Shown here piece by piece: positions 18,302 to 40,844 of a stretch of 64,000 nucleotides of DNA (position 1 is the first letter of the stretch; each line of letters starts with the position of its first letter). Below the pieces are notes generated by a model. It was not told the DNA's origin, ran no database searches, and saw only the letters and a program-made list of their open reading frames with translations. Source of the DNA: Plantibacter flavus (GTDB lineage Bacteria > Actinomycetota > Actinomycetes > Actinomycetales > Microbacteriaceae); the NCBI RefSeq assembly GCF_900177615.1, contig NZ_FXAP01000001.1:626825-690824 (forward strand), read 5' to 3'. A program made the position numbers and the translations under genes.

Positions 18302-18377
<76 letters not shown>

Positions 18378-24660: not shown

Positions 24661-24702
24661 CCGAGCATCTCGTTCGTGCATCTCATCGCTGAAGGAATCA
24701 TC

Positions 24703-26508
24703 ATGCCCACGGAATCCCAACCCGTGCCTCATCCCAGAACACCTGCGGCCCCGGCCGCACCGGAGATCCTGACGGGAGCCCAGGCGATCGTCCGATCGCT
24801 CGAGCTCCTCGGGGTCACCGACATCTTCGGTCTGCCCGGCGGAGCGATCCTGCCGACCTACGACCCGCTGATGGACTCGACGAAGCTCCGTCACATCCTG
24901 GTCCGACACGAGCAGGGCGCCGGCCACGCGGCCGAAGGATACGCCGCCGCCGGTGGCGGGATCGGCGTGTGCATCGCGACGTCCGGCCCCGGCGCGACGA
25001 ACCTCGTCACCGCCATCGCCGACGCCTACATGGACTCGGTGCCGATGGTCGCGATCACCGGTCAGGTGTTCTCGACCCTCATGGGCACTGACGCGTTCCA
25101 GGAGGCGGACATCGTCGGCATCACCATGCCGATCACGAAGCACTCCTTCCTCGTCAAGACCCCGGAGGAGGTCCCGGCGGCCATCGCCGCGGCCTACGAG
25201 ATCGCGGGTACCGGCCGTCCCGGACCGGTTCTGGTCGACATCACCAAGGACGCCCAGCAGGCCGAGGCGCCGTTCATCTGGCCGCCGAAGGTCGACCTGC
25301 CCGGCTACCGCCCGGTGACGAAGGCGCACGGCAAGCAGATCCAGGCCGCTGCGCAGCTGCTCGTCAACGCCAAGAAGCCGGTGCTGTACGTCGGCGGCGG
25401 CGTGATCCGCTCCAAGGCCTCCGAGGAACTGCTCGCGCTGGCCGAGGCGACCGGGGCTCCGGTCGTGACGACGCTCATGGCTCGCGGGGCGTTCCCCGAC
25501 TCGCACACGCAGCACCTCGGCATGCCCGGCATGCACGGCACCGTCCCGGCGGTGCTCGCGCTGCAGGAGGCCGACCTGCTCGTGTCGCTCGGTGCCCGGT
25601 TCGACGACCGCGTGACCGGCAAGGCCTCGCTCTTCGCGCCGAACGCCAAGGTCGTCCACGTGGACGTCGACCCGGCCGAGATCTCGAAGATCCGCATCGC
25701 GGACGTCCCCATCGTGGGCGACGCTAAGGACGTCATCGTCGACCTCCAGTCGGCGTTCGAGGCAGCCGCCCGCGAGGTCACCCCCGACATCGCCGAGTGG
25801 TGGTCCTACCTCGACGGTCTCCGCGAGGAGTTCCCGCTGGGCTACGCCGAGCCGACCGACGGTCTGCTCTCGCCACAGCACGTGATCTCCCGCATCGGCG
25901 AGATCACCGGTCCGGAGGGCGTCTTCGCGTCGGGCGTCGGCCAGCACCAGATGTGGGCGGCGCAGTTCATCAAGTACGAGCGTCCGAACTCCTGGCTGAA
26001 CTCCGGTGGTGCCGGGACCATGGGCTACTCGGTTCCCGCGGCCATGGGTGCCAAGGTGGCCCAGCCCGATCGCCACGTGTGGGCGATCGACGGCGACGGC
26101 TGCTTCCAGATGACCAACCAGGAACTCGCGACCTGCACGATCAACAACATCCCGATCAAGGTCGCGATCATCAACAACTCCTCACTGGGCATGGTCCGCC
26201 AGTGGCAGACGCTCTTCTACGACGGTCGGTACTCGAACACCGACCTGAACACCGGGCACGACACCATCCGCATCCCCGACTTCGTCAAGCTGGCCGAGGC
26301 CTACGGTTGCCTCGCGATCCGCGTGACGAAGGAGGAGGAGGTCGACGCCGCCATCAAGCTCGCCCTGGAGACGAACGACCGTCCGGTCGTCATCGACTTC
26401 GTCGTGAGTGCCGACGCGATGGTGTGGCCGATGGTGCCGCAGGGTGTCAGCAACAGCTACGTCCAGTACGCCAAGGACCACAGTCCGTCGTTCGATGAGG
26501 AGGCCTGA
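24703..26508 (+). CDS. ilvB: Acetolactate synthase large subunit
   Basis: 601 residues from the ATG at 24703, preceded by GAAGGAA; an in-frame GTG at 24676 is less likely. It is a thiamine-diphosphate enzyme that condenses pyruvate with pyruvate or 2-oxobutyrate, the first common step for branched-chain amino acids. The catalytic Glu lies in [17 protein letters not shown]-binding regions in the middle, and the ThDP/Mg motif [15 protein letters not shown] (about 464-478) near the end. The regulatory subunit gene ilvN follows after 2 bases. Confidence 0.97.
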
Positions 26509-26510
26509 GC

Positions 26511-27020
26511 ATGAGCAGCCACGTCCTGAGCCTCCTCGTCGAGGACAAGCCCGGTCTGCTGACCCGCGTCGCCGGGTTGTTCGCCCGTCGGGGCTTCAAC
26601 ATCGAGAGCCTCGCGGTCGGCCACAGCGAGATCGAGGGCCTGTCCCGGATCACGGTCGTCGTCGACGTCGAGGAGCTTCCGCTCGAGCAGGTGACGAAGC
26701 AGCTGAACAAGCTCATCAACGTCATCAAGATCGTCGAGCTGGATCCGGCGCAGTCCGTCCAGCGTGAGCACCTGCTCATCAAGGTCCGCGTCGACAACTC
26801 CACCCGTTCCCAGGTGCTGGAAGCCGTCAACCTGTTCCGGGCCCGCGTCGTCGACGTGGCGACCGACGCCCTCGTGATCGAGGTCACGGGCGACTCCGGG
26901 AAGACGACCGCGCTCCTCAAGGTGCTCGAGCCCTACGGCATCAAGGAGATCGCCCAATCGGGTCTCCTCGCCATCGGGCGCGGCTCGAAGTCCATCACCG
27001 AACGCGTCTTCAAGAACTAG
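26511..27020 (+). CDS. ilvN: Acetolactate synthase small (regulatory) subunit
   Basis: 169 residues. The N-terminal ACT domain (SLLVEDKPGLLTRVAGLFARRGFNIESLAVG) binds valine and confers feedback inhibition on IlvB; a C-terminal domain (about 80-165) follows with the SLLAIGRGSKSI end typical of the family. It is tightly linked to ilvB and precedes ilvC by 48 bases. Confidence 0.96.
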   Translation: MSSHVLSLLVEDKPGLLTRVAGLFARRGFNIESLAVGHSEIEGLSRITVVVDVEELPLEQVTKQLNKLINVIKIVELDPAQSVQREHLLIKVRVDNSTRSQVLEAVNLFRARVVDVATDALVIEVTGDSGKTTALLKVLEPYGIKEIAQSGLLAIGRGSKSITERVFKN

Positions 27021-28097
<1,077 letters not shown>

Positions 28098-28185: not shown

Positions 28186-29508
28186 TCAGGCGGTCGCTGC
28201 TCCGGTCGTGCCCGGCTCGAGGAAGATCTCGATGACCGGGATCGGGGTGTCGGGTTCACCGATCGGCAGGTGCAGGGTCACCGTGTCGGGACCGAGTCCC
28301 TTCGGTTGGGTGTGCTGGTTCGGCAGATCGTGCTCCGGGCGATGCACCTGGAACGGCACCTCGGAGCCGTCCGACAACAGCTGCGCGTAGCGCACCCGGC
28401 CGCCGAGACCGGGCAGGTGCAGGTGCACGAACGGCCAGGCGAAGACGTGCACGTACAGCCGGTCGCCGCGTTGCGTGTATCGGACGTCGGTCGGACTGCT
28501 GAACTCCGACGGTCCGCATCCTCGGATCGCGCGCTCGTGGAGCGCGAACCAGTCGGCGAGGACCTCGAGTCGTTCGATCGCGCGAGGATCGATCGTCCCG
28601 CGCGCGGTCGGTCCGATGTTCAGCAGCATGTTGCCGTTCTTCGAGACCGAATCGATGAGCATCCGCAGGAGCAGCTCCGGCGACTTGTAGTCGAGGTTGT
28701 CGCGGTCGTACCCCCAGCTGCCGTTCAGGGTCTGGCAGGCCTCCCACCGGAGGGGGTGGCCGTCGGGACCGACCGGTGTCACCACGGGCTGGTACTGCTC
28801 CGGGGTGGTGACGTCGCCCGGGAGTTCGAGGCGGTCGTTGATGAGGATCTCCGGCTGCAGCCCGCGGATCATCTCGACGAGTTCCTCGGAGCCCCAGTCG
28901 GCGGCGCCCTTCCCCGGCAGACCTTCGATGCCCTGCGAGTAGCTGAAGTCGAAGAAGAGGTAGTCGATCGGGCCGTAGCCGGTGAGCAGCTCGCGCACCT
29001 GGCCGTGCAGGTAGTCCCGGTAGCGGGACCAGTCCCGGTCGGCGTTCGCTGCGAGCGCCTCGGGGTCGTCGCGTCGCGGGTGGATGCCGTCGACCGTGAA
29101 GTCGGGGTGATGCCAGTCGATGAGCGAGTGGTAGAAGCCGATTCGGAGCCCCTCGGCGCGGAAGGCCTCCACGAACTCCGCCACGAGGTCACGGCCGGCG
29201 GGCGTGTGCATGGACGTGAAGTCGGTGAGCGCCGAGTCCCACAGGCAGAACCCGTCGTGGTGCTTCGTCGTGAGGACCGCGTACCGGAAGCCGGCCGCCT
29301 TGGCCTGCTTGGCCCAGGCGCGGGGGTCGAACCGGTCGGGGTCGAAGTGCTCGCGGTAGCGCTCGTAGTGTTCGGCCGAGAGGTGTTCCCGCGTCTGCAC
29401 CCACTCATGGCGTGCTGGGAGGGCGTAGAGGCCCCAGTGCAGGAACAATCCGAATCTCGCCTCGTTGAACCAGGCGGTGTCGGGTCGGGGGATGGTGGTC
29501 TCGGTCAC
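28186..29508 (-). CDS. Cytoplasmic alpha-L-fucosidase (GH29)
   Basis: 440 residues from the GTG at 29508. The GH29 barrel is clear: RFGLFLHWGLYALP, YAVLTTKHHDGFCLWDS and the region YLFFDFSYSQG, where D187 is the expected nucleophile; LQPEILINDRL and a GD.TTPEQY stretch follow. A C-terminal beta domain (about 330-430) completes the protein. There is no signal peptide or membrane segment, so it should act inside the cell on imported fucosides. Many GH29 enzymes have G where this one has F after the nucleophile. It is the last gene of a bottom-strand set with the oxidoreductase and the kinase. An exported variant is excluded by the N-terminus. Confidence 0.88.
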   Translation of the reverse strand: MTETTIPRPDTAWFNEARFGLFLHWGLYALPARHEWVQTREHLSAEHYERYREHFDPDRFDPRAWAKQAKAAGFRYAVLTTKHHDGFCLWDSALTDFTSMHTPAGRDLVAEFVEAFRAEGLRIGFYHSLIDWHHPDFTVDGIHPRRDDPEALAANADRDWSRYRDYLHGQVRELLTGYGPIDYLFFDFSYSQGIEGLPGKGAADWGSEELVEMIRGLQPEILINDRLELPGDVTTPEQYQPVVTPVGPDGHPLRWEACQTLNGSWGYDRDNLDYKSPELLLRMLIDSVSKNGNMLLNIGPTARGTIDPRAIERLEVLADWFALHERAIRGCGPSEFSSPTDVRYTQRGDRLYVHVFAWPFVHLHLPGLGGRVRYAQLLSDGSEVPFQVHRPEHDLPNQHTQPKGLGPDTVTLHLPIGEPDTPIPVIEIFLEPGTTGAATA

Positions 29509-29632
29509 GGCGGCCCTTCGATCGTCGAGTGGGTTCACGGCGGTGCGGGGGCAGGCTAACACGAAAGGTCGGATGTCTGCTGTCCGGTGGGCCGGCGTGG
29601 TCAGGACGTCGGACCGGCTGCGCGTCGACGGT

Positions 29633-30634
29633 TCAGGCGTCGTGCGGTTCGACGACCTGCACGGGCACGCCGGTGTCCAGCGATGTCTTCGCCGCCAACG
29701 CGACCGTCAGGGCCGCGAGGGCACTCCGGCCGGTCACTCGGAACGGTTGGACGTCTCGCTCCACGCAGTCGAGGAAGGAGGCCATCTGTCGTCGGTAGGG
29801 ATCGGTCTCGTCGAGGTCGTAGGGGCCGTGCGCGGCGGCCGACCCGAGCGCGTCGACCGAGAGCGGCGGTGTGTGGGTCGGGGATCCGCCGACGAATCGG
29901 TGGGCGAGGAGCCCGGTGCTGCCGAGCACCTCGATGGCCGAGCTGAATCCGAAGGCCGGCGGGAGCTCCATGGAGGTGAGGACGCGCCCGATCCCGCCGT
30001 CGGCGTAGTCGACCGTCGTCTCGATCGGGCGACCGGTACCGGTGCGTCGTGCTGACACGGATCGCGGCTGACCGAGGAGCTGGTTCAGCTGGTCGAAGTC
30101 GTGGATCGCGAAGTCGACGAGGGGGCCGCCGGAGCGTCGCTCGTCCTGCCACCACGGTGACGGGGCGGCGGGGGAGCTCAGCCGTTCGGCCGTGACGGCG
30201 AGGGGTGTGCCGACAGCCTCGTCCCGCACCGCGTCGTCGATCGCCTCGTACCCGCCGAAGAACCTGACGACATGCGCGACCATGAACGTCCGGCTGGACT
30301 CGTCGGCGGTGCGCAGGATCGTGTGGGCGTCGGCGAGCGTCAGGGCGATCGGTTTCTCCAGCAGGACGTGCTTGCCGGCACGGAGCGCCCTGACGGCGAG
30401 ATCCCGATGGGTGTCGGTCGGCGTGCAGATGACGACGATCCCCACGGAGGCATCCCGGAGCACCTCGTCGACCGAGGTGGTGAGTCGTGCGGCCGGCGCC
30501 TCCGGCATGGCTCTCGGCGACCGGGCCGAGCACAGGTAGGCGATCCTGTCCGCTGCACCGAGTCCGGCGAGCGCGCGGACGTGTGCCAGCCCCATGGCAC
30601 CGGTGCCGATGACGGCGATCCGGTCCGCCGTCAC
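29633..30634 (-). CDS. Gfo/Idh/MocA-family NAD(P)-dependent sugar oxidoreductase
   Basis: 333 residues. An N-terminal Rossmann domain (IAVIGTGAMGLAHVRAL at 6-22) is followed by the family's EKPIALTLADA (about 96-106) and a C-terminal alpha/beta domain (about 125-325) with DFAIHDFDQL near 175. Members oxidise or reduce cyclic sugars, inositols or sugar derivatives. Its start overlaps the end of the kinase gene, so the two are coupled. Within this island a fucose- or amino-sugar dehydrogenase role is plausible, but the substrate cannot be read from sequence. A 124-base gap precedes the fucosidase. Confidence 0.85.
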   Translation of the reverse strand: MTADRIAVIGTGAMGLAHVRALAGLGAADRIAYLCSARSPRAMPEAPAARLTTSVDEVLRDASVGIVVICTPTDTHRDLAVRALRAGKHVLLEKPIALTLADAHTILRTADESSRTFMVAHVVRFFGGYEAIDDAVRDEAVGTPLAVTAERLSSPAAPSPWWQDERRSGGPLVDFAIHDFDQLNQLLGQPRSVSARRTGTGRPIETTVDYADGGIGRVLTSMELPPAFGFSSAIEVLGSTGLLAHRFVGGSPTHTPPLSVDALGSAAAHGPYDLDETDPYRRQMASFLDCVERDVQPFRVTGRSALAALTVALAAKTSLDTGVPVQVVEPHDA

Positions 30635-31656
30635 CGCGTCGCCCCAGCAGCCAGGTCCTCGCGCAAGCGGCTGAGGGTCGCGTCGTCGACGTCCCCGCCC
30701 AGCATCCTGATGCCCAGGGCGGCGGCTCCGACGAGGCCGTCGGCGACCGGGACGAGTCTGGCCCCGGCGGCAGCCGATGTCAGGCGCTCCGCGGCTGAGG
30801 GGACGGACGGGAGGAGTCCGTCGACGAGCACACTGCCGCCGACGACGAGGGTGCTCTCTCCGTGGTCGGAATCCGGAGCCAGCACCCGTTCCACGAGGAC
30901 CGCCAAGCGGTCGACGGCAGCGTCGAGGATGGACCGCGCGACGTCGTCGTCCGCGGCTTGGAAGGCGAGCGGCGCCAGGCGGGCGATGGCGATGGGGGGA
31001 CCGTCGTTCACCGACCGGATGAGTGTGTCGAGTACCGGGGACCGGCGGTGGTCCGCGTCACCGGGTGAAGACGGGTCCGGAGTGAACCCGACCGCCTGGG
31101 AGAGCAGCGGGGTGAGCCCCGTGCGGGGTCCGATGCCGTCGAGGTCGGCGGCGACCGCGCGGATCACGCGTCGGGCGATCCAGAACCCGGAGCCGCCGTC
31201 ACCGAGGAGCCAGCCGGCGCCGCCGACCTCCCGGACGACGAGACGGTCCCTGATCCGTCCCGCGACGCTCCCGGTCCCCGCGACGAGCACGACGCCGTCC
31301 GGCGACGCCGAGCCGGAGCCGTACATGCCGAGCAGATCCGGCTCGATCACGACCGGTCCGAGTCCGAGCGGTACGAGGTGCGCGTCCAATGCGCGGCGGT
31401 AGGCGTCGGACACCTGCCCCGCCTGCGTGATCACCACGGGCGACCCGGACGGGAGGGGCGGTATGGACGAGGTCGTCCTGGCCTGGTCGAGGGCTGCACG
31501 AGCCGCGAGCGCGATCTGCGTGGCAGCGCTGTCCACGCCGGACGACGTCGGATTCCCGCCGCCCGCGCGCCCGGAACCGAGGCGACGTCCGGAGGCGTCA
31601 ACGAGCACCGCGCGGGACGAGGTGCCGCCGGCGTCGACCGCCAGAGTTGTTTTCAT
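30631..31656 (-). CDS. N-acetylglucosamine-kinase-like protein (BadF/BadG family)
   Basis: 341 residues from an ATG at 31656 (another ATG directly before it). ASKHA-fold ATPase: phosphate-1 motif LAVDAGGTSSRAVLVD, phosphate-2 block VVLVAGTGSVAG (about 120), and the GGAGWLLGDGGSGFWIAR stretch (about 142-159) typical of GlcNAc kinases of this family. These phosphorylate N-acetylglucosamine or a related amino sugar after uptake. It is divergent from the MurR/RpiR regulator gene, and ends overlapping the oxidoreductase. A glucosamine or N-acetylmuramic acid substrate is also possible. Confidence 0.83.
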   Translation of the reverse strand: MKTTLAVDAGGTSSRAVLVDASGRRLGSGRAGGGNPTSSGVDSAATQIALAARAALDQARTTSSIPPLPSGSPVVITQAGQVSDAYRRALDAHLVPLGLGPVVIEPDLLGMYGSGSASPDGVVLVAGTGSVAGRIRDRLVVREVGGAGWLLGDGGSGFWIARRVIRAVAADLDGIGPRTGLTPLLSQAVGFTPDPSSPGDADHRRSPVLDTLIRSVNDGPPIAIARLAPLAFQAADDDVARSILDAAVDRLAVLVERVLAPDSDHGESTLVVGGSVLVDGLLPSVPSAAERLTSAAAGARLVPVADGLVGAAALGIRMLGGDVDDATLSRLREDLAAGATR

Positions 31657-31678
31657 CATCGTCATCATCTCGAAACAT

Positions 31679-31708
31679 GTTGCCGTGGGCCACAACGTAC
31701 TGTAAGAA
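31679..31708. promoter_or_regulatory. Divergent promoter and candidate operator between kinase and MurR/RpiR genes
   Basis: On the top strand TTGCCG (31680-31685) and TAAGAA (31703-31708) are 17 bases apart, a good sigma-70-type promoter for the regulator. An imperfect palindrome GTTG-N10-CAAC (31679-31696), with an inner GTGGGCCAC, covers the -35 box and is a candidate operator for the regulator itself. The palindrome is weak evidence. Confidence 0.4.
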
Positions 31709-31749
31709 TCAGTTTCGCGTCACTCCAACGAAGGAGAAAAGGAATTTCC

Positions 31750-32697
31750 ATGACTGTTTCCATCCGCACCGACCCACCGGTCGAGCACGCCACCGGCGTG
31801 ACCAACCGGATTCGGTCGCGGATGCCGGAGATGTCCGGGGTCATGCTGCGTATCGCGGACTACCTGTTGGAGAACCCCGACGCGCCCCTCACCCTCACGA
31901 TCGGTGAGCTCGCAGCCGATTCGGGCGTCTCAGCGGCGACCATCACCCGCTTCTGCCGGATCATCGGATACACCGGCTACGCGCCGTTCCGGGTCGACCT
32001 CGCCAAGGACTTCGGTCGCAGCACCGCACGCGACTCCTGGCAGACCGACATCGGCCGGGCGTTCGGCCCCGACGACTCGGCTCCGGACGTCCTGAGCACG
32101 CTGCTCAACGCGCACACCCGGACGCTGCGCGAGACCGCCGACGTGATCGACCTCGAGGTCATGCTCGAGATCGCCGCAGCCATCGCGCGCAGTCGGAACG
32201 TCGACATCTACGGTGTCGGCGGCAGCGCGATGCTCGCCGACGAGATGCAGGCCAGGCTGTACCGGATCGGCATCAGCACGCACGCCTGGTCGGAGGTCCA
32301 CGCGGGCCTCACCAGCGCGGCGATCCAGGGACCGGACTCCGTCGCCCTGGGGATCAGCAACACCGGGCGCACCGAGGAGACCATCCAGATGCTCCGCCAG
32401 GCGGGTCGCGCTGGCGCGCTCACCGTGGCGATCAGCAACAACCCGGACTCCCCGCTCGTCGCCGCGTCGACGCTGGCCATCATCACCTCGGCCCACGAAC
32501 GATTCCTGCAGCCCGACGACCTCTCCGCCAAGCACGGTCAGCTGTTCGTCCTGGATCTGTTGTACCTGTTCGTCGCGCAGCAGAACTTCGAGCGCACGAC
32601 CAAGCGCCTCGCGGCCTCCGCCCTCGCGGTCGCCCCGCACCGCCGACCGACCAAGGCCGGAGCCCTGTCCGAGACCGCCTCGCCCGTGGGCGTCTGA
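31750..32697 (+). CDS. MurR/RpiR-family transcriptional regulator
   Basis: 315 residues from the ATG at 31750, with AAGGAG 13 bases upstream. Residues about 20-100 form the RpiR helix-turn-helix (GELAADSGVSAATITRFCRIIGYTGYAPFRVDLA), and about 135-260 a SIS domain that binds a phosphosugar effector (YGVGGSAMLADEMQARLYRIG, GISNTGRTEETIQ). Such regulators usually control genes for the sugar they sense, here probably an amino-sugar phosphate. Its stop lies 10 bases before the SIS-protein gene, so it appears to head the operon with the transporter. Confidence 0.9.
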   Translation: MTVSIRTDPPVEHATGVTNRIRSRMPEMSGVMLRIADYLLENPDAPLTLTIGELAADSGVSAATITRFCRIIGYTGYAPFRVDLAKDFGRSTARDSWQTDIGRAFGPDDSAPDVLSTLLNAHTRTLRETADVIDLEVMLEIAAAIARSRNVDIYGVGGSAMLADEMQARLYRIGISTHAWSEVHAGLTSAAIQGPDSVALGISNTGRTEETIQMLRQAGRAGALTVAISNNPDSPLVAASTLAIITSAHERFLQPDDLSAKHGQLFVLDLLYLFVAQQNFERTTKRLAASALAVAPHRRPTKAGALSETASPVGV

Positions 32698-32707
32698 GAG
32701 GAACCGA

Positions 32708-33487
32708 ATGAGCACCACATCCACCAGCACCTGGACCGATCACGTCGATCGCTACACCGACGAGGTCACCTCGCGTCTCGCGGACATCACCCAGGCGGCA
32801 CGGTCCGGCGAACTCGATCCGGCGATCGACCTGCTGGTCGCGGCCCTCGAGCGCGGAGCGGTCATCCAGGCGTTCGGCACCGGCCACTCGGAGGCGTTCG
32901 CAATGGAGATCGCCGGCCGCGCCGGTGGACTGATCCCGACGAACAAGATCGCCCTGCGGGACGTCGTCCTCCGCGGCGAACGGTCCGTCGACGACCTCGG
33001 TGGTGCCGCGCTGGAGCGCAGCGGCGACGTCGCGGCGGAGCTCTTCGCGATCTCACCGGTGGGGGAGGGCGACGTGTTCATCATCGCGTCGAACTCCGGC
33101 GTCAACGGGTCGATCGTGGGACTCGCCCTGATCGCCAAGGAGCACGGCCACCCCGTCATCGCCGTGACCTCGCTCGAGCACACCTCGCGCGTCGAGCCGA
33201 AGCACCCGAGTGGGCTGCGGCTCTCCGAGGTGGCCGACGTGGTGCTCGACAACCGTGCTCCGTTCGGCGACGCGACCATCGAGGTCCAGGACGGTGTCCC
33301 GGTCGGCGCGGTGTCCTCGATCACGGCGGCCTACCTCGCGCAGCTCCTCACCATCGGCGTCGCGGCGAGGATCGCGGCGACCGGCGAGACCCCACCGCTC
33401 TACATCTCGGCCAACATCCCGGGCGGCGACGAGCACAACAGTGTGCTCGAGGACCGCTACCGAGGCCGGATCAGACGTGACGCCTGA
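32708..33487 (+). CDS. SIS-domain sugar-phosphate-binding protein
   Basis: 259 residues. A single SIS domain is clear: VIQAFGTGHSEAFAMEIAGRAGGLIP and IIASNSGVNGSIVGLALIAKEHGHPVIAVTS with GTGHSE and SNSGxNGS as the phosphosugar loops. It resembles the group once called UPF0309. Related proteins are isomerases or etherases, but the deaminase (NagB) signature is absent. In this island it could isomerise or hold GlcNAc-6-phosphate or a similar phosphosugar. It is followed after 95 bases by the substrate-binding protein gene. Confidence 0.83.
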   Translation: MSTTSTSTWTDHVDRYTDEVTSRLADITQAARSGELDPAIDLLVAALERGAVIQAFGTGHSEAFAMEIAGRAGGLIPTNKIALRDVVLRGERSVDDLGGAALERSGDVAAELFAISPVGEGDVFIIASNSGVNGSIVGLALIAKEHGHPVIAVTSLEHTSRVEPKHPSGLRLSEVADVVLDNRAPFGDATIEVQDGVPVGAVSSITAAYLAQLLTIGVAARIAATGETPPLYISANIPGGDEHNSVLEDRYRGRIRRDA

Positions 33488-33500
33488 ACCCGAGGCGTCG

Positions 33501-33550
33501 CACCACCCGCACCACACACCCGACACCACCACCCCGACAGCACCACACCC
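33501..33550 (+). promoter_or_regulatory. C/A-rich, T-free leader tract, possible Rho-utilisation site
   Basis: This 50-base stretch in the leader of the solute-binding-protein gene contains 31 C, 15 A, 4 G and no T on the coding strand. C-rich, G-poor and unstructured RNA is the known binding preference of Rho, so it could be a Rho-utilisation site between the SIS gene and the transporter. A chance composition run is also possible. Confidence 0.35.
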
Positions 33551-33582
33551 GGGCAACACTCGAATCACTGGAAGGTAGACCG

Positions 33583-34989
33583 ATGGACAAGCAGCCAGCA
33601 ACGCTCCAACGCCGCGATTTCCTGCGAGGAGCACTCGCGACCGCGATCCTCCTCCCGCTGGGCGGGACGCTCGCGTCCTGTGTCGGCGGCGGAGGCGGGG
33701 CCACCACCACCGGCGGACCGGTCTCGGCCGACAACCCGTTCGGCATGGCCGCCAACTCGACGGTCGACGCCGTCATCTTCAAGGGCGGGTACGGCATCGA
33801 GTACACCGAGTTCGCCGGGAAGCTCGTCGAGAAGCAGCAGGCGGGCTCGACCGTCAAGGTCACGGCCGCGACGAACATCGCGCAGACCCTCCAGCCGCGG
33901 TTCGTCGCCGGCAACCCGCCGGACGTCATCGACAACAGCGGCGCCGGCCTCATCGGCATCAACACCATCCGCGAGCAGCTCGCCGACCTGACGGACGTCA
34001 TCGAAGCGAAGAACTACGAGGGCAAGGTCATCAAGGACACCCTCTACCCGGGTGTCGTCGAGCCGGGCACCTTCGACGGCAAGTTCGTCCAGCTGAACTA
34101 CGTGCTGACGGTCTACGCGGTCTGGTACTCGGCGGCGCTCTTCGAGGCGAACGGCTGGACGCCCCCGAAGACCTGGGCCGAGGCACTCGACCTCGGTGCG
34201 AAGGCCAAGGCGCAGGGCAAGTATCTGTTCGGCTGGGGTACCGAGGCGGCCACCTACTACCTGACGATGGCGATCGCGTCCGCGATCAAGGAGGGTGGCG
34301 ACGAGGTCCGTCTGGCGCTCGAGAACCTCGAGGCGGACTGCTGGTCGAAGCCGGCCGTCCAGGACGTGCTCAAGGGTCTCAAGGCGATCATCGACGCCGG
34401 GTACGTCAAGCCCGGTGGCGCCGGAACGCAGTTCACGGCTGCGCAGGCGCAGTGGAGCAACTCGGAGGACTTCATCCTCTACCCCTCGGGTGGCTGGATC
34501 GAGAACGAGATGAAGACCCAGACGAAGGACGGCTTCAAGATGACCGGCGCGCCCGAGCCGACGGTCTCCGCCGACTCCGCCCTGCCGTACTCGGCGCTCC
34601 ACAGCACCGCGGGTGAAGGGTTCATCGTCCCGTCGCAGGGCAAGAACGTCGGCGGTGGCAAGGAGTTCCTGCGGGCCATGTTGTCGAACGACGCCGCGGT
34701 GAACTTCGCCAAGACGACCTTCTCGTCGACGATCGTCAAGGACACGATCCCCGAGGACGGCTTCGGTTCGACGGCGCTCGTGTCCCAGGTGAAGATGTTG
34801 AACGACGCGGGCACCGACGTGTTCTCGTGGAGCTTCATCGACCTGTACGGACTCAACACGGACCTCCTCGTCCTCTGGAACACGTTCCTGCAGGGCGGTT
34901 CCGACGTCGCCACGCTCACCAAGGGCATGCAGGACATCTCCGACAAGGTCCGTAACGACGACTCCGTGGACAAGGTCACCGTCAAATGA
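33583..34989 (+). CDS. ngcE: GlcNAc/chitobiose ABC transporter substrate-binding lipoprotein, NgcE-like
   Basis: 468 residues. The N-terminus has a twin-arginine signal (QRRDFLRG) and a lipobox ending in LASC near residue 30, so it should be a Tat-exported lipoprotein. The mature part is a type 2 solute-binding fold with VIFKGGYGIEYTEFAGKLVEKQQ, a start typical of the NgcE (N-acetylglucosamine/diacetylchitobiose) branch. It binds saccharide outside the membrane and feeds NgcF and NgcG. The permease gene overlaps its stop (ATGA). Substrate assignment to GlcNAc-containing saccharides is by family resemblance. Confidence 0.82.
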   Translation: MDKQPATLQRRDFLRGALATAILLPLGGTLASCVGGGGGATTTGGPVSADNPFGMAANSTVDAVIFKGGYGIEYTEFAGKLVEKQQAGSTVKVTAATNIAQTLQPRFVAGNPPDVIDNSGAGLIGINTIREQLADLTDVIEAKNYEGKVIKDTLYPGVVEPGTFDGKFVQLNYVLTVYAVWYSAALFEANGWTPPKTWAEALDLGAKAKAQGKYLFGWGTEAATYYLTMAIASAIKEGGDEVRLALENLEADCWSKPAVQDVLKGLKAIIDAGYVKPGGAGTQFTAAQAQWSNSEDFILYPSGGWIENEMKTQTKDGFKMTGAPEPTVSADSALPYSALHSTAGEGFIVPSQGKNVGGGKEFLRAMLSNDAAVNFAKTTFSSTIVKDTIPEDGFGSTALVSQVKMLNDAGTDVFSWSFIDLYGLNTDLLVLWNTFLQGGSDVATLTKGMQDISDKVRNDDSVDKVTVK

Positions 34990-35990
34990 CGGCGGTCGGC
35001 ACGCCGATCGGGAAGGTGGGAGGGGCTACCCCTCCCGCCGCCCGGCGGTTGCGCCGCCGGGACTTCACGTTCGACCGGGTCTCGTTCTTCCTGGTCTTCC
35101 TGATCGTGCCGGTGGTGGGGTACGTCGTCTTCGTGGTCTCGCCGTTCGCGCAGGCGGCGTACTACTCGTTGACGAACTGGTCCGGGTTCTCCCCGGGCAT
35201 GGACTTCGTCGGGTTCTCGAACTACACGAAGCTCTTCCAGGACCAGACCTTCCTCCAGTCCATGGGCAACAGCGTCGCGCTCGCGATCGTCCTGCCGCTC
35301 GTGACCCTCGGGATCGCGTTCCTCTTCGCCTCCCTCATCACGATCGGCGGGCCGAGCAACGGTCCGATCCGCGGCCTCCGCAACTCGAGCGTGTACCGCG
35401 TGATCACCTTCTTCCCGTATGTCGTGCCGGCCATCGTCATCGGCCTCATCTGGAAGCAGATCTACGACCCGTCGTCCGGTCTGCTGAACGGCTTCCTGAC
35501 CGGTATCGGGCTCGACCAGTTCACCTCCTTCGCCTGGCTCGGTTCGCCGGACACGGCGATGATCGCGACCATGTTCGTCATCGTCTGGGGACTCATCGGG
35601 TTCTACACGGTGCTCTTCATCGCGGCGATCAAGGGCGTGCCGGCCGAGGTGTACGAGGCGGCACGGATCGACGGCGCGGGTCGCCTGCGGACCGCGCTCA
35701 CGATCACGATCCCGCTGATCCGCGACAACATCCAGACGGCGTACATCTACATGGGCATCCTCGCCCTCGACGCGTTCGTGTACATGGCCGCGTTGAATCC
35801 CGGCGGCGGCCCGTCCAACACGACGCTCGTGATGTCGCAGCAGCTGTTCACGACGGCGTTCACCAAGGGCCAGTTCGGCTACGCCTGCGCCATGGGGGTC
35901 GTGCTCGCGCTCGTCACCCTGATGTTCGCGGGCGTCGTCTTCCTGGTCAGCCGACTCACCGGCGGCAACGATGAAGGGGTGGCGGAATGA
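34986..35990 (+). CDS. ngcF: Sugar ABC transporter permease, NgcF-like
   Basis: 334 residues. Six membrane helices follow a basic, mostly cytoplasmic N-terminus; the loop YEAARIDGAGRLRTALTITIPLI (EAA motif, about residues 222-244) couples to the ATPase. The pattern fits the MalF-like permease of carbohydrate importers. It overlaps both ngcE and ngcG by four bases. No ATP-binding gene is present in the cluster. Confidence 0.88.
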   Translation: MTAVGTPIGKVGGATPPAARRLRRRDFTFDRVSFFLVFLIVPVVGYVVFVVSPFAQAAYYSLTNWSGFSPGMDFVGFSNYTKLFQDQTFLQSMGNSVALAIVLPLVTLGIAFLFASLITIGGPSNGPIRGLRNSSVYRVITFFPYVVPAIVIGLIWKQIYDPSSGLLNGFLTGIGLDQFTSFAWLGSPDTAMIATMFVIVWGLIGFYTVLFIAAIKGVPAEVYEAARIDGAGRLRTALTITIPLIRDNIQTAYIYMGILALDAFVYMAALNPGGGPSNTTLVMSQQLFTTAFTKGQFGYACAMGVVLALVTLMFAGVVFLVSRLTGGNDEGVAE

Positions 35991-36898
35991 CCGTCCAGAC
36001 CACGGCGACGACCGCGAACCCGGCGGTCGTCGGAACCGGCACGCGCACACCGGCCAGCCGCAAGCCGACCACGGGCGACCGCGTCGTCGGGACGGCATCG
36101 CACACGGTGCTCATCATCTGGTCGATCGTGGTCGTCGTCCCGTTGCTCTGGACGGTCATGTCGTCGTTCAAGACGAGCTCCGAGATCTTCGCCTCGCCGT
36201 TCTCGCTGCCATCGAAGTGGAGCTTCGACAACTACGTGAACGCGTGGACGACGGCCGGGATCGGGAGCTTCTTCCTGAACTCGATCGTGGTGGTGTTCGG
36301 CGCCCTCATCGTGACCATGCTGTTCGGCTCGATGTGTGCGTACGTGCTGGCGCGGTTCCGCTTCTTCGGGAGCCGGGCGATCTACTACCTGATGCTCGCT
36401 GGCCTCACGTTCCCCGTGTTCCTCGCGATCGTGCCGTTGTTCTTCGTGCTGCAGAGCCTCGGGTTGCTCAACTCGCTCCCGGGACTCATCCTCACGTACG
36501 CGGCGTTCGCCTTCCCGTTCACGGTGTTCTTCCTGTTCTCGTTCTTCAAGTCGCTGCCGGTCTCCATCGCGGAGGCGGCCGCGATCGACGGAGCAGGGGA
36601 GTGGCGGACCTTCTTCCAGGTGATGCTGCCCATGGCGAGGCCGGGGCTCGCGACCGTCGCGATCCTCAACTTCGTGGGGCTGTGGAACCAGTTCCTCCTG
36701 CCGGTGGCACTCAACTCGAACCCGCAGAACTACGTATTGACGCAGGGGATGGCGTCGTTCGCCGCCCAGGCCGGGTACTCGGTGGACTTCGGTGCGCTCT
36801 TCGCAGCGTCCGTGATCACCGTGGTCCCCGTGCTCATCGTGTACCTGATCTTCCAGCGCCAGCTGCAGGGTTCGGTGTCGCAGGGCACGGACAAGTAG
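35987..36898 (+). CDS. ngcG: Sugar ABC transporter permease, NgcG-like
   Basis: 303 residues. About six membrane helices with the MalG-type EAA loop AEAAAIDGAGEWRTFFQVMLPMARPG (about 195-220). It pairs with NgcF to form the membrane channel. The N-terminal 35 residues are polar and Thr/Ala-rich. The stop lies 53 bases before the CutC gene. As with NgcF, an ATPase of the shared MsiK type encoded elsewhere would be needed. Confidence 0.88.
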   Translation: MTVQTTATTANPAVVGTGTRTPASRKPTTGDRVVGTASHTVLIIWSIVVVVPLLWTVMSSFKTSSEIFASPFSLPSKWSFDNYVNAWTTAGIGSFFLNSIVVVFGALIVTMLFGSMCAYVLARFRFFGSRAIYYLMLAGLTFPVFLAIVPLFFVLQSLGLLNSLPGLILTYAAFAFPFTVFFLFSFFKSLPVSIAEAAAIDGAGEWRTFFQVMLPMARPGLATVAILNFVGLWNQFLLPVALNSNPQNYVLTQGMASFAAQAGYSVDFGALFAASVITVVPVLIVYLIFQRQLQGSVSQGTDK

Positions 36899-36938
36899 CG
36901 CAGCGGCGTGCGCGTCCTCGGCCCGAGCGGATCACTGG

Positions 36939-36944
36939 AACAAT
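36939..36944 (+). promoter_or_regulatory. -10-like box before the CutC gene
   Basis: AACAAT ends 7 nt before the ATG at 36952 and overlaps the alternative ATG at 36943, which argues for the downstream start. It suggests an extra, leaderless transcript for this gene. Confidence 0.35.
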
Positions 36945-36951
36945 GGGTCCA

Positions 36952-37707
36952 ATGAGCCTCCAGTCGCCAATCGCCGTCGAGATCGCCGTCCAGGACGTGG
37001 AGGGGGTCCGCATCGCCATCCGCGAGGGAGCCCAGCGGGTCGAGCTGTGCCAGGCCCTCGGCACCGGTGGGCTCACCCCCTCCATCGGACTGGTCATGGC
37101 GGCGGTCCGTGCTGCGGACGAAGCCGGGCTCAGCGATTTCGTGCACGTCCTCGTGCGTCCGCGAGAGGGCGGTTTCGTCTACTCGCCCGCGGAGATCGAC
37201 GTCATGTCCGGCGACATCCTCGCGCTCGAGGCCGCAGGCGCTGCGGGCATCGTGGTCGGCGCCCTCCGGTCCGATCGCACGATCGACCTGGAGGCGCTGG
37301 CTCAGCTGCGTCAGGCTGCGGGCTCGCTCGCGGTGACCTTCCATCGGGCCGTCGACGCGACGACCGACCCCGTCCGGTCCGCCGACCAGCTGCGTGACGC
37401 CGGTGTGGACCGTCTGCTGACGTCCGGCGGCGCGCGGGCGAGCATCGACGGTGCCGAGAAGCTCGCGCAGATGGCTTCGAGGGGCGACAGCTCGATGCAG
37501 ATCATGGCCGGTGGCGGCGTCACGATCGATGCGATCCCCGCCCTCGCACGGGCAGGTGTCGACGCGGTGCACCTCTCCGCCCGGCGTCGAGCCGGCCGGG
37601 TCACCGAGACCGGCCCCGGCGGAGGGTCGCCGAGCTACGACATCACGGACGCGACGACCGTCGCTCGCGCGGTGGCCGCGGCCAGGCGCGCTGCCGTCGC
37701 CGTCTGA
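36952..37707 (+). CDS. CutC-family TIM-barrel protein
   Basis: 251 residues from the ATG at 36952 (254 from 36943). The whole protein matches the CutC fold: VEIAVQDVEGVRIAIREGAQRVELCQALGTGGLTPS at the start, VHVLVRPREGGFVY, the DGAVVGAL-like IVVGALRSDRTID and VTFHRAVDATTDP, RLLTSGGA and IMAGGGVT as barrel loops. CutC is annotated as copper homeostasis protein, but a copper role is doubtful for many members; genes of this family are often found beside sugar-use genes. Here it follows the ngc permeases, hinting at an enzyme of amino-sugar or fucoside metabolism. The start of the frame upstream of 36943 is a shadow. Confidence 0.88.
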   Translation: MSLQSPIAVEIAVQDVEGVRIAIREGAQRVELCQALGTGGLTPSIGLVMAAVRAADEAGLSDFVHVLVRPREGGFVYSPAEIDVMSGDILALEAAGAAGIVVGALRSDRTIDLEALAQLRQAAGSLAVTFHRAVDATTDPVRSADQLRDAGVDRLLTSGGARASIDGAEKLAQMASRGDSSMQIMAGGGVTIDAIPALARAGVDAVHLSARRRAGRVTETGPGGGSPSYDITDATTVARAVAAARRAAVAV

Positions 37708-37752: not shown

Positions 37753-38139
37753 TCAGAGCGCCACGATGACGAGGGCGATGATCAGCACGAGCTGACCGAT
37801 GAGCCGTGGGACGAACGGCACGGCGAGGCGACCGAACCGCTCGGGCTGGCGCGCTGCTGCGGCGTTCGCCGGGAACACCGCGACGAGGAACACGATCAGG
37901 CAGACCACTGCGGCGAGCCTGGTGGGTGGGACGAGCAGGCCGATGCCGCCCGCGATCTCGCACACACCGGTGAAGGCGACGAGCGTCCTCGGTGTGATGG
38001 TGCTGTAACGGAAGGGTGCCGGGATCATCGCGGCCATGGTCCTCGCCGGTCCCGGGAGGAAGTGGAGGACCCCCATGCCGATGAACATGATCGCGAGGAC
38101 GACGGTCAGGACGGACTGCAGGAGCGGGAACGGGTTCAC
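37753..38139 (-). CDS. DoxX-family membrane protein
   Basis: 128 residues from the GTG at 38139. Four hydrophobic helices; IMFIGMGVLHFLPGPARTMAAMIP, TPRTLVAFTGVCEIAGGIGLL and a closing PFVPRLIGQLVLIIALVIVAL are typical of DoxX proteins. The family includes membrane components of oxidative-stress or quinone-linked systems, but the role here is unknown. The start is supported by a CAGAAT box (bottom strand, 38146-38151) 6 nt upstream. It is divergent from the gene at 38211. Confidence 0.8.
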   Translation of the reverse strand: MNPFPLLQSVLTVVLAIMFIGMGVLHFLPGPARTMAAMIPAPFRYSTITPRTLVAFTGVCEIAGGIGLLVPPTRLAAVVCLIVFLVAVFPANAAAARQPERFGRLAVPFVPRLIGQLVLIIALVIVAL

Positions 38140-38145
38140 CAGGCA

Positions 38146-38204
38146 ATTCTGCTCCGTCGAGTCCGGATCGCCGCGCTCGGTGGTCGGCCCGGCGGCGATA
38201 GGCT
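38146..38204. promoter_or_regulatory. Divergent leaderless-type promoters for DoxX and the 38211 gene
   Basis: Bottom-strand CAGAAT (38146-38151) ends 6 nt before the DoxX GTG; top-strand TAGGCT (38199-38204) ends 6 nt before the ATG at 38211. Both predict transcription starting at the start codon. Confidence 0.5.
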
Positions 38205-38210
38205 GGCGGT

Positions 38211-38759: not shown

Positions 38760-38764
38760 CCCTG

Positions 38765-39251: not shown

Positions 39252-40844
39252 GTGTCGAAACCGGTCGTACTGATCGCCGAAGAACTCTCACCAGCAACCG
39301 TCGACGCCCTCGGGCCCGACTTCGACGTGCGTTCCGTCGACGGGACGGACCGCCCGGCTCTGCTCGCGGCGATCGCCGACGCCGACGCCATCCTGGTCCG
39401 ATCCGCGACCAAGGTCGACGAGGAGGCCATCCAGGCGTCCACCCGGTTGAAGGTCGTCGCGCGCGCGGGTGTCGGTCTCGACAACGTCGACATCAAGGCG
39501 GCGACGACGGCCGGGGTCATGGTCGTCAACGCGCCCACGTCGAACATCATCTCCGCGGCCGAGCTCACCGTCGGGCACATCCTGAGCCTCGCCCGCCACA
39601 TCCCGGCCGCGCACGCCGCGCTCGCCCAGGGGCAGTGGAAGCGGTCCAAGTACACGGGTACCGAGCTGTACGAGAAGACCATCGGCATCATCGGCCTCGG
39701 CCGTATCGGTGCCCTCATCACTGCTCGTCTGCAGGCGTTCGGCACGAACGTCATCGCGTACGACCCCTACATCACGTCCGCTCGTGCGCAGCAGCTCGGG
39801 GTGCAGCTGGTCACGCTCGACGAGCTGCTGGCGCAGTCCGACTTCATCACCATCCACATGCCGAAGACACCGGAGACGACGGGCATGATCGCCGGCCCGC
39901 AGTTCGCGCTCATGAAGCCGACGGCCTACGTCGTCAACGTCGCCCGCGGTGGCCTGATCGACGAGGACGCGCTGTACGAGGCGCTGTCCAACCACGTCAT
40001 CGCCGGTGCCGGCCTCGACGTCTTCGTCAGCGAGCCGCCCACCGACACGAAGCTGCTCGGGCTCGAGAACGTCATCGTGACGCCGCACCTCGGTGCATCC
40101 ACGGATGAGGCACAGGAGAAGGCCGGCGTCTCGGTCGCCAAGTCCGTGCGCCTCGCGCTCGGCGGCGAACTCGTCCCGGACGCGGTCAACGTCGCCGGCG
40201 GCGTGATCGACCCCTACGTCCGTCCCGGCATCCCGCTCGTCGAGAAGCTCGGGCAGGTGTTCGCCGCGCTGTCGACCTCGTCGCTCACGAGCGTCGACGT
40301 CGAGGTCCACGGTGAGCTGAGCGGGTACGACGTCAGCGTGCTGAAGCTGGCCGCGCTCAAGGGGATCTTCACCAACATCGTCAGCGAGACGGTCTCGTAC
40401 GTGAACGCCCCGCTGCTCGCCGAGCAGCGCGGTGTCGTCACGCGCCTGCTCACCGACGAGGTGAGCGAGGAGTACCGCAACGTCATCACGTTGCGCGGAG
40501 CCCTCAGCGACGGATCGCAGATCTCGGTGTCGGGCACGCTGACGGGAACGAAGCAGACCGAGAAGATCGTCGAGATCAACGGCTACGACGTCGAGGTGCC
40601 GTTCGCGAAGCACCACATCGTGATGGTCTACACCGACCGGCCCGGCATCGTGGCCGTCTACGGTCAGCGGTTCGGCGAGGCGGGCATCAACATCGCCGGG
40701 ATGCAGATCGCCCGTCACGAGGCCGGCGGCCCGGCGCTCAGCGTGCTGACGGTCGATTCACCGGTCGCCGACGACGTCCTCGAGGTCATCCGCGAGACGA
40801 TCGACGCGACGCTGCTCCGCGAGATCGACATCACCGAGCAGTAG
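39252..40844 (+). CDS. serA: D-3-phosphoglycerate dehydrogenase
   Basis: 530 residues from the GTG at 39252, preceded by GAAGGAA. It catalyses the first step of serine synthesis, oxidising 3-phosphoglycerate with NAD. The NAD-binding domain has the GLGRIGALITARLQAFG motif (about 150-166); catalytic residues lie in NVARGGLIDEDAL and the conserved His in TPHLGAST. The middle allosteric substrate-binding domain and a C-terminal ACT domain (about 455-530; HHIVMVYTDRPGIVAVYGQRFGEAGINIA) make this the long form found in mycobacteria, which serine inhibits. A TAGGCT box lies at 39184-39189. The next structure is a terminator. Confidence 0.96.
   Translation: MSKPVVLIAEELSPATVDALGPDFDVRSVDGTDRPALLAAIADADAILVRSATKVDEEAIQASTRLKVVARAGVGLDNVDIKAATTAGVMVVNAPTSNIISAAELTVGHILSLARHIPAAHAALAQGQWKRSKYTGTELYEKTIGIIGLGRIGALITARLQAFGTNVIAYDPYITSARAQQLGVQLVTLDELLAQSDFITIHMPKTPETTGMIAGPQFALMKPTAYVVNVARGGLIDEDALYEALSNHVIAGAGLDVFVSEPPTDTKLLGLENVIVTPHLGASTDEAQEKAGVSVAKSVRLALGGELVPDAVNVAGGVIDPYVRPGIPLVEKLGQVFAALSTSSLTSVDVEVHGELSGYDVSVLKLAALKGIFTNIVSETVSYVNAPLLAEQRGVVTRLLTDEVSEEYRNVITLRGALSDGSQISVSGTLTGTKQTEKIVEINGYDVEVPFAKHHIVMVYTDRPGIVAVYGQRFGEAGINIAGMQIARHEAGGPALSVLTVDSPVADDVLEVIRETIDATLLREIDITEQ

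What the first reader, a model, noticed from the sequence alone, without database searches (positions are those of the whole stretch)
28186..37707. Possible intracellular fucosyl-GlcNAc utilisation island
Seen: a GH29 fucosidase with no signal peptide, a Gfo/Idh/MocA oxidoreductase, a BadF-type GlcNAc-kinase-like gene, a MurR/RpiR regulator, a SIS protein, an NgcEFG-like importer and CutC, arranged as two divergent sets around 31.7 kb. Known: NgcEFG-type importers take up GlcNAc or chitobiose, and some lactobacilli import fucosyl-GlcNAc and cleave it inside with GH29 enzymes. Inferred: the island imports a fucosylated GlcNAc saccharide (for example from plant or insect N-glycans), releases fucose and GlcNAc in the cytoplasm, phosphorylates GlcNAc, and oxidises fucose with the dehydrogenase. 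No nagA/nagB genes are in the window. I know of no described actinobacterial system with this exact set.
Basis: partly seen in the sequence, partly recalled or inferred. Interest (0 to 1): 0.7.

Follow-up and report, generated by a model that had tools for sequence, protein, structure and literature searches.

The report
Amino-sugar import module beside a fucosidase
A plant-associated bacterium carries a widely shared set of genes that looks built to import and phosphorylate an amino sugar, set between a fucose-cutting enzyme and an unrelated gene that were probably there first, so the proposed single 'fucosyl-sugar island' is only partly borne out.

Summary
The window is from a Plantibacter genome. 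Seven genes (29633-36898) form a module: Gfo-BadF kinase, divergent from RpiR-SIS-NgcEFG. Its six genes from BadF to NgcG recur together in 18 of 18 other Microbacteriaceae genomes with a close SIS relative, and in most of 80 named loci. The binding protein passes the curated NgcE cut-off; its nearest solved relative binds lacto-N-biose, galacto-N-biose and fucosylated forms, and five sugar-contact residues are kept in 77 of 77. The SIS protein is a NagS (UPF0309) relative with the catalytic residues. NagA, NagB and an apparent L-fucose operon lie elsewhere in the genome.

GH29 and CutC do not travel with the module. CutC directly follows ilvC, without the module, in 5 of 30 ilvC loci; a GH29 relic lies at the same place in an Okibacterium genome whose module is on another contig. 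Unrelated GH29 genes do adjoin the module in 6 Microbacterium loci, which keeps a fucose link alive. So: a HexNAc import module is well supported; fucosyl-GlcNAc as its substrate is possible but unproven; CutC and Gfo-as-fucose-dehydrogenase are not supported.

The parts
28186..29508 (-). GH29 alpha-L-fucosidase (440 aa, probably cytoplasmic); neighbour of the module, probably an older resident of the ilvC-serA interval
   Evidence: PF01120 293 bits; nearest solved 6gn6, 428 bits; Asp187, which I take for the nucleophile by position, invariant in 7 aligned proteins; relic at the same place in G002
29633..30634 (-). Gfo/Idh/MocA oxidoreductase, overlaps BadF by 4 bp; part of the module in several Microbacteriaceae
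   Evidence: PF01408; same cluster c11 near BadF in 9 of 80 loci, 3 of them Plantibacter
30631..31662 (-). BadF/BcrAD-type sugar kinase
   Evidence: PF01869 69.7 bits; NagK_SO3507 72.7 bits, below its cut-off 370; best solved relative is a hexokinase (2e2n, 61.7 bits), then NAGK and a MurNAc/GlcNAc kinase
31704..31718 (+). operator/promoter-like element of the divergent BadF/RpiR region (AAGAATCAGTTTCGC)
   Evidence: best match in the window, 17.4 bits, but the weakest of the 27 distinct instances the matrix was built from; weaker sites at 31642 (inside BadF) and 31736; pattern in 53 of 65 related intergenic regions, shuffled mean 0.24
31750..32697 (+). MurR/RpiR-family regulator with SIS domain
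   Evidence: PF01418, PF01380
32708..33487 (+). SIS protein of the UPF0309/PRK02947 family, relative of NagS (SCO4393)
   Evidence: NF002805 270.8 bits, cut-off 135; PDB 9eol 103.9 bits; 78 of 221 aligned residues identical
33583..34989 (+). NgcE-type solute-binding protein
   Evidence: TIGR03851 579.9 bits, cut-off 399.65; nearest solved 9h0n
34986..35990 (+). NgcF-type permease
   Evidence: PF00528; conserved with NgcE
35987..36898 (+). NgcG-type permease
   Evidence: PF00528; conserved with NgcE
36952..37707 (+). CutC-family protein; resident of the ilvC-serA interval, not part of the module
   Evidence: PF03932 192.2 bits; CutC directly after ilvC in 5 of 30 ilvC loci without the module
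22966..28097 (+). ilvD-ilvB-ilvN-ilvC, left flank of the interval
   Evidence: ORFs (names read from the sequence, not scanned); conserved order
39252..40844 (+). serA, right flank (before it DoxX 37753-38139 and two small genes 38211-38759, 38756-39136)
   Evidence: serA named from the sequence; DoxX_2 by Pfam on 37753-38313

Best explanation
The 'island' is composite. Its working unit is a transferable HexNAc-saccharide module, Gfo-BadF | RpiR-SIS-NgcEFG (29633-36898). Shown by sequence: an NgcE-type importer without its own ATPase gene, a kinase of the superfamily that holds GlcNAc and MurNAc kinases, a NagS/MurQ-related SIS enzyme, an RpiR regulator and a conserved element in the divergent promoter. 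Inferred: NgcE captures a small saccharide that presents a HexNAc; a shared MsiK/UgpC-type ATPase (C10:298574) powers uptake; BadF makes the HexNAc 6-phosphate; the SIS enzyme acts on it by NagS/MurQ-type chemistry (ring opening, removal of what is on C3) and the product enters the NagA/NagB route encoded elsewhere; RpiR senses the phosphosugar and controls both divergent transcripts. In Plantibacter this module lies between two older residents of the ilvC-serA interval, GH29 and CutC. GH29 may have been recruited to strip fucose from the imported or another cytoplasmic saccharide, the fucose going to the separate fucose operon; CutC is a bystander.
For: BadF, RpiR, SIS, NgcE, NgcF and NgcG present together in 18 of 18 non-Plantibacter genomes with a close SIS (over 300 bits), 11 genera, with differing flanks. 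Of 80 named loci (best of 477): SIS 80, NgcE 78, BadF 76, NgcF 74, NgcG 74, RpiR 71, some contigs being cut short. NgcE cut-off met. Contact residues G47, Y208, W290, E294, E327 of 9h0n kept in 77 of 77 module binding proteins, window included. NagS-essential H53, R64, E94, D179 conserved in the window and in 14 of 14 aligned SIS proteins. Promoter pattern 53 of 65 against a shuffled mean of 0.24. Nag/Aga-type genes near the module in 11 of 80 loci, clusters named from scanned representatives. nagA and nagB model hits in 21 of 21 module genomes, over the cut-off in 20 and 16. Composite origin: CutC after ilvC in 5 of 30 loci, GH29 relic in G002.
Against: In the NagS paper three non-Streptomycetaceae UPF0309 proteins (26-36% identical to NagS) did not use GlcNAc-6P or did so negligibly, so the SIS reaction here is unknown. 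BadF falls far below the curated NagK cut-off (72.7 of 370) and its best solved relative is a hexokinase. The galactose-specifying residues of 9h0n are not kept, so its ligands cannot simply be carried over. Nine more distant SIS loci (L024-L032, 29-49%) do not show the module in the 3.6-3.7 kb seen, so it belongs to one SIS subfamily only. Six Microbacterium loci have GH29 genes beside the module, so a fucose role may be more than local. The promoter pattern was chosen by eye from the same, related sequences. The own genome already has ROK-NagB-ABC, Aga-type and two MurQ clusters, so the need for a further HexNAc route is not obvious. The order of events (GH29 and CutC first) is inferred from few genomes.
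Confidence: 0.6

Rival explanations
1. One reading: one functional unit that imports fucosyl-GlcNAc (or a fucosylated LNB/GNB-like saccharide), cuts off fucose with cytoplasmic GH29 and phosphorylates the GlcNAc.
For: Nearest solved binding protein binds H1 and Lewis a trisaccharides, and F44, which lines its fucose-methyl pocket, is kept in 77 of 77; unrelated GH29 genes adjoin the module in 6 Microbacterium loci, in 4 of them directly after ngcG on the same strand (Pfam checked on one protein of each type); GH29 present and unbroken in 7 of 7 Plantibacter with dN/dS 0.06-0.11; nag genes and an apparent fucose operon in the genome. I made no formal test of chance adjacency.
Against: GH29 adjacent in 0 of 18 other genomes; GH29 relic at the same site in G002, whose module is on another contig; no operator-like site before GH29; fucose-contact T101 of 9h0n is L in the window and not Thr in any of 77; the GH29 group of the nearest solved enzyme (SSN cluster 3, identity of 6gn6 recalled) is promiscuous, partly xyloglucan-active.
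Confidence: 0.25
2. Plain GlcNAc/chitobiose uptake (classical NgcEFG function) with the SIS protein as a NagS-like regulatory or detoxifying enzyme; GH29 unrelated.
For: NgcE equivalog cut-off met; Streptomyces coelicolor NgcE binds GlcNAc and (GlcNAc)2; NagS catalytic residues kept.
Against: UPF0309 proteins tested outside Streptomycetaceae had no or negligible GlcNAc-6P dehydratase activity; Aga/tagatose-type genes follow BadF on one strand in L128, L133, L148, which points beyond GlcNAc.
Confidence: 0.25
3. A second MurNAc-type system in which the UPF0309 SIS protein replaces MurQ as etherase.
For: Same plan as a cluster in this genome that I read as ABC-NagZ-BadF-MurQ-RpiR (L214; MurQ by model, BadF 34% and RpiR 35% by BLAST, NagZ read from sequence); NagS is related to MurQ.
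Against: The SIS protein has no MurQ-model hit at E<=0.001 whereas 15 of 21 module genomes hold MurQ over the cut-off, this genome two copies.
Confidence: 0.08
4. GH29 serves plant xyloglucan or other fucosides and its nearness to the module is accidental.
For: Nine other family genomes hold GH29 of 55-63% identity, none near the module; L084, L085 and L087 sit with GntR, ABC, aldo/keto reductase or mandelate-racemase-type genes, L089 directly after ilvC; cluster 3 GH29 reported on xyloglucans.
Against: Kept unbroken beside the module in 7 of 7 Plantibacter while decayed in a genome lacking the module there; Microbacterium parallels.
Confidence: 0.35

Closest known systems
NgcEFG of Streptomyces (GlcNAc/diacetylchitobiose importer)
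   Same: Binding protein passes TIGR03851; two permeases, no ATPase gene beside them; MsiK/UgpC-like ATPase elsewhere
   Different: S. coelicolor ngcEFG adjoins rok7B7 and a putative mannosidase gene; here RpiR, SIS and BadF genes
BiGFL-BP (Blon_0883) importer of Bifidobacterium infantis
   Same: Nearest solved binding protein, 95 of 317 aligned residues identical; HexNAc-site residues kept
   Different: Galactose-specifying D210 and Q98 are not kept (L and G in the window; Q/L/R and G across 77)
NagS (SCO4393), GlcNAc-6P dehydratase
   Same: UPF0309 family; H53, S54, R64, E94, S119, S121, D179, N228 conserved
   Different: 35% identity versus 58.7% or more among Streptomycetaceae orthologues; no dmdR1 neighbour; S91 is Ala
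MurNAc utilisation clusters (MurK/MurQ/MurR; plan recalled)
   Same: Kinase of the BadF superfamily, RpiR regulator, SIS enzyme, importer
   Different: SIS is UPF0309, not MurQ
Lactobacillus casei fucosyl-GlcNAc utilisation (AlfB)
   Same: GH29 without signal peptide (table passage); 3FN use depends on AlfB
   Different: AlfB is in SSN cluster 16, the P. thiaminolyticus enzyme in cluster 3; different transporter type (recalled)
GalNAc (Aga)/tagatose-6-phosphate pathway
   Same: SIS (AgaS-like by my reading), ROK, PfkB, class II aldolase and DeoR genes share a strand with BadF in some relatives
   Different: In Plantibacter such genes are in a separate cluster on C8; no Aga-specific model reached its cut-off

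Membership tests
NgcE (TIGR03851) | score over the curated cut-off | tested here: met
   579.9 bits versus 399.65
NgcEFG transporter | two permeases next to NgcE, ATPase (MsiK) supplied in trans | tested here: met
   UgpC/MsiK-type ATPase at C10:298574, 474.2 bits, cut-off 432; that it serves this importer is inference
NgcEFG transporter | binds GlcNAc or (GlcNAc)2 | not testable with these tools
   needs protein; only residue conservation available
NagS | catalytic H53, R64, E94, D179 | tested here: met
   (window H60, R71, E103, D188)
NagS | identity of at least 58.7% and dmdR1 linkage | tested here: not met
   78 of 221 (35%); neighbours are RpiR and NgcE
MurQ etherase | match to MurQ models | tested here: not met
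   no MurQ family listed for the SIS protein at E<=0.001; TIGR00274 does not list its place
NagK (NF046058) | score over the curated cut-off | tested here: not met
   72.7 of 370; superfamily PF01869 met
GH29 fucosidase | PF01120 over its cut-off and an Asp nucleophile | tested here: met
   293 bits, cut-off 25.2; Asp187 invariant, its role assigned by position; acid/base not assigned
Fucosyl-GlcNAc utilisation unit | GH29 and importer co-conserved | tested here: not met
   0 of 18 other genomes; parallels in 6 Microbacterium loci involve unrelated GH29
Fucosyl-GlcNAc utilisation unit | GH29 acts on Fuc-GlcNAc; binding protein takes it | not testable with these tools
   needs purified proteins
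CutC as part of the unit | travels with the module | tested here: not met
   near the module only in Plantibacter (3 of 80 loci; 0 of 18); after ilvC without the module in 5 of 30 loci

The most novel reading that the evidence does not exclude
BadF kinase and the UPF0309 SIS enzyme together split 3-O-substituted HexNAc disaccharides without a glycosidase: the kinase phosphorylates O6 of the reducing HexNAc and the SIS enzyme eliminates the sugar on C3, as MurQ eliminates lactate and NagS eliminates water. The module would then be a phospho-lyase route for LNB/GNB-like or 3-fucosyl-HexNAc sugars, explaining why the six core genes include no glycosidase, why both nag- and aga-type genes join it in different lineages, and why accessory genes vary (GH29, mutarotase-fold DUF5107, none).
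Probability: 0.12. Interest if true: 0.8.

Novelty: new variant of a known kind. Interest (0 to 1): 0.42.

Why it matters
The module gives a recurrent genomic context to UPF0309 SIS proteins outside Streptomyces, whose substrate is open: the NagS paper found the tested ones inactive or nearly so on GlcNAc-6P. Kinase, importer and regulator beside the enzyme narrow the search to a HexNAc 6-phosphate and make it directly assayable. The locus is also a case where two neighbours (fucosidase and CutC) look like members of a cluster but are explained better by where the cluster lies.

Tried and rejected
CutC as part of the sugar system: rejected after the ilvC survey. Gfo as fucose dehydrogenase: disfavoured. 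SIS as MurQ: no model match and two MurQ loci in the genome. RpiR-type site before GH29 or CutC as proof of co-regulation: none found. DUF5107 (accessory gene in relatives, not in the window): predicted fold, mean pLDDT 74.6, is mutarotase-like plus helical repeats, best match 5cd6; this gave no activity. Literature on novelty: three or more of CutC/BadF/RpiR/'SIS domain' gave no paper; CutC with 'ether hydrolase' none; Plantibacter with fucosidase gave 3 papers, seen only as listings; three or more of UPF0309/NgcE/BadF/Microbacteriaceae/RpiR/lacto-N-biose gave one paper on another subject, listing only. So 'I found no description of this module' rests on those searches of open-licence papers only.

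The T205 position of 9h0n aligned to Thr in the pairwise alignment but to Ala in the multiple alignment; I did not count it. My first gene caller missed SIS and CutC in several loci; counts come from tblastn or the second caller. Papers were seen as passages (PMC6167110, PMC5583593, PMC10154630, PMC11189522, PMC13103868, PMC7366668) or abstract, passages and some sections (PMC12680351, PMC12345172); none was read whole.
Full report
OBSERVATION. Pfam/NCBIfam: GH29 PF01120 293 bits; Gfo/Idh/MocA PF01408; BadF PF01869; RpiR PF01418+SIS; SIS_2 with NF002805 (PRK02947) 270.8 bits over its cut-off 135; binding protein TIGR03851 (NgcE) 579.9 bits over 399.65; two BPD_transp_1 permeases; CutC PF03932 192 bits. 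The window is C10:626825-690824 of a 4.3-Mb genome. Its nearest named relatives are Plantibacter, Microbacteriaceae.

CONSERVED MODULE. In 150 family genomes the SIS protein has a match in 39; 21 of these are close (over 300 bits): 3 Plantibacter and 18 others from 11 further genera. In 18 of those 18, BadF, RpiR, SIS, NgcE, NgcF and NgcG lie together, BadF divergent from RpiR in each (stretches of 13-19 kb). The flanking proteins that I scanned, a part of them, differ (SHMT/FolD, sigma factor, enolase, a HisRS-like protein, LacI/DUF993, DUF5107 and others), so the six genes behave as one transferable unit. In the same 18 loci GH29 was found in 0, CutC in 0, and a Gfo of 47-51% identity in 2 (L066, L070), separated from BadF by a DUF5107 gene; L077 has a 31% Gfo on the other side. 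Nine more distant SIS loci (L024-L032, 29-49%) do not show the module in the 3.6-3.7 kb seen. A profile scan of genome contigs found 477 relatives; the best 80 were kept. In these: SIS 80, NgcE 78, BadF 76, NgcF 74, NgcG 74, RpiR 71, several contigs being short. Titles are actinobacterial except one Devosia MAG (L169). Nine loci have Gfo of the same cluster near the module, 3 of them Plantibacter; ten have DUF5107.

PROMOTER. The BadF/RpiR intergenic regions share an element like GAGAATAGTTTTCA: the pattern [AG]AATNNNTTTC is in 53 of 65 regions against a shuffled mean of 0.24 and maximum of 2 in 300 shuffles. It was picked by eye from these same, related sequences, so the contrast is generous. 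The best site in all 64 kb of the window is at 31704, with weaker ones at 31642 and 31736; none precedes GH29 or CutC. The window's site is the weakest of the 27 distinct instances from which the matrix was made, its identical Plantibacter copies among them.

BINDING PROTEIN. The nearest solved relative is 9h0n/9h0o/9h0p (104 bits), which is BiGFL-BP (Blon_0883) of Bifidobacterium infantis; the paper (PMC12345172; abstract, outline, passages and section 6 read) reports binding of LNB, GNB, H1 and Lewis a. In an alignment of 77 module binding proteins (window included) with 9h0n, G47, Y208, W290, E294 and E327, and F44, are the same in 77 of 77; the galactose-specifying D210 is Q in 60, L in 11 (window included), R in 6, Q98 is G in 77, and fucose-contact T101 is S, L, A, Q or K. 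My reading: the HexNAc subsite is kept, the partner sugar differs. The same subsite would fit GlcNAc, chitobiose or Fuc-GlcNAc, and I had no Streptomyces NgcE to compare.

SIS PROTEIN AND KINASE. The SIS protein is 35% identical (78 of 221) to NagS, the GlcNAc-6P dehydratase SCO4393 (PMC12680351; abstract, passages and sections 10, 13, 14 read). NagS residues H53, S54, R64, E94, S119, S121, D179, N228 are conserved, S91 is Ala; the eight are invariant in 14 aligned module SIS proteins. Against a simple transfer of function: of four homologues tested in that paper only the Streptacidiphilus one was significantly active; the Clostridium one was negligible, the Paenibacillus and Acidothermus ones inactive. 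So the chemistry is probably kept and the substrate is another one. BadF is far below the curated NagK cut-off (72.7 of 370); its best solved relative is a hexokinase (61.7 bits), NAGK and a MurNAc/GlcNAc kinase scoring lower. That it phosphorylates a HexNAc is inference from context.

METABOLIC SETTING. NagA and NagB model hits occur in 21 of 21 module genomes (over the cut-off in 20 and 16), MurQ over its cut-off in 15 of 21. In the window's genome I read, from gene order and sequence, with BLAST to representatives for part of the genes: a fucose operon on C7 (aldo/keto reductase 51% and MR_MLE dehydratase 70% identical to those of fucose-type clusters; amidohydrolase, mutarotase-like, FAH and SDR genes by eye), an Aga/tagatose-type cluster on C8, a ROK-NagB-ABC set and NagA on C10, AnmK-MurQ-NagB on C2, and ABC-NagZ-BadF-MurQ-RpiR on C9. 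An UgpC/MsiK-type ATPase is at C10:298574. Eleven of 80 loci (L110-L113, L128, L133, L148, L172-L174, L184) have Aga/Nag-type genes near the module. The clusters were named from representatives: ROK, SIS (AgaS-like by my reading), PfkB hexose kinase and class II ketose-bisphosphate aldolase (the last two over a subfamily cut-off), DeoR, and a NagA-like deacetylase just under its cut-off (221.2 of 225.65); no Aga-specific model reached its cut-off. In L128, L133 and L148 five such genes follow BadF on one strand with short gaps. This supports a HexNAc substrate, GlcNAc and/or GalNAc.

GH29 AND CUTC. GH29 is in 7 of 7 Plantibacter genomes at 93-100%, all seven with the full ilvC-GH29-...-CutC-...-serA order, and its dN/dS against three other Plantibacter is 0.06-0.11. 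Nine other genomes of the 150 hold GH29 of 55-63%, none near the module; L084, L085 and L087 lie in fucose-type clusters, L089 directly after ilvC and L090, same genus, some 5 kb after it. Among the 30 closest ilvC loci of 150 genomes (3 Plantibacter, 27 others; 1.5 kb on each side), CutC (54-58%) follows ilvC directly in 5 (4 genera); none of these five genomes has any SIS match. DoxX and the two small genes before serA also recur there. The simplest reading is that the module entered between GH29 and CutC. CutC exists in 8 of 21 module genomes, beside the module only in the 3 Plantibacter. Telling against 'mere neighbours': in 4 Microbacterium loci (L130, L135, L142, L166) a 427-aa GH29, only 27-31% like the Plantibacter one, directly follows ngcG on the same strand, and in those and two more (L141, L149) a further GH29 (cut by the locus end in three) and a roughly 700-aa gene (the L130 copy without Pfam match) lie close by, in 5 of the 6 also a Gfo-type gene. 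A fucosidase and the module have thus come together at least twice.

JUDGEMENT. The importer-kinase-regulator part is a conserved HexNAc module of unknown exact substrate; GH29 is a plausible but unproven partner; CutC is a bystander; Gfo belongs to the module in this branch rather than to fucose oxidation. Interest lies chiefly in the UPF0309 enzyme now having a kinase, importer and regulator beside it. GH29 specificity cannot be told: the nearest solved enzyme is 6gn6, which I take to be the P. thiaminolyticus enzyme aLfuk1/iso1 (recalled), placed in the promiscuous SSN cluster 3 (PMC11189522, passages only).

Noticed in passing
window 9240-9606, 18302-18377, 50948-51022: tmRNA and tRNA-Lys/tRNA-Gln genes; none borders the module.
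   Followed up: no
L130:15889-18006 and the matching gene in L135, L141, L142, L149, L166: A roughly 700-aa protein (L130 copy without any Pfam match at 1e-5, with a signal-peptide-like start by eye) beside GH29 genes next to the module in Microbacterium.
   Followed up: partly
L109:5023-6921 and relatives: DUF5107 proteins recur near the module in 10 of 80 loci; the predicted fold is mutarotase-like with helical repeats.
   Followed up: partly
L214 (own genome C9:91000-106000): Cluster read as ABC-NagZ-BadF-MurQ-RpiR, the same plan as the module but with MurQ in place of the UPF0309 SIS.
   Followed up: partly
L210 (own genome C7:276000-295000): Complete-looking oxidative L-fucose operon, away from the window.
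   Followed up: partly
L027 (G139:C2:4774-8502): Two UPF0309-type SIS genes in tandem with a BadF-type gene nearby.
   Followed up: no
L094 (own genome C3:337000-355000): A second, distant GH29 match with an ABC importer beside L-arabinose isomerase and an FGGY kinase.
   Followed up: no
window 29633-31662: Gfo and BadF evolve faster than the rest of the module in Plantibacter (dN/dS 0.16-0.30 and 0.17-0.25; the other module genes 0-0.14).
   Followed up: no
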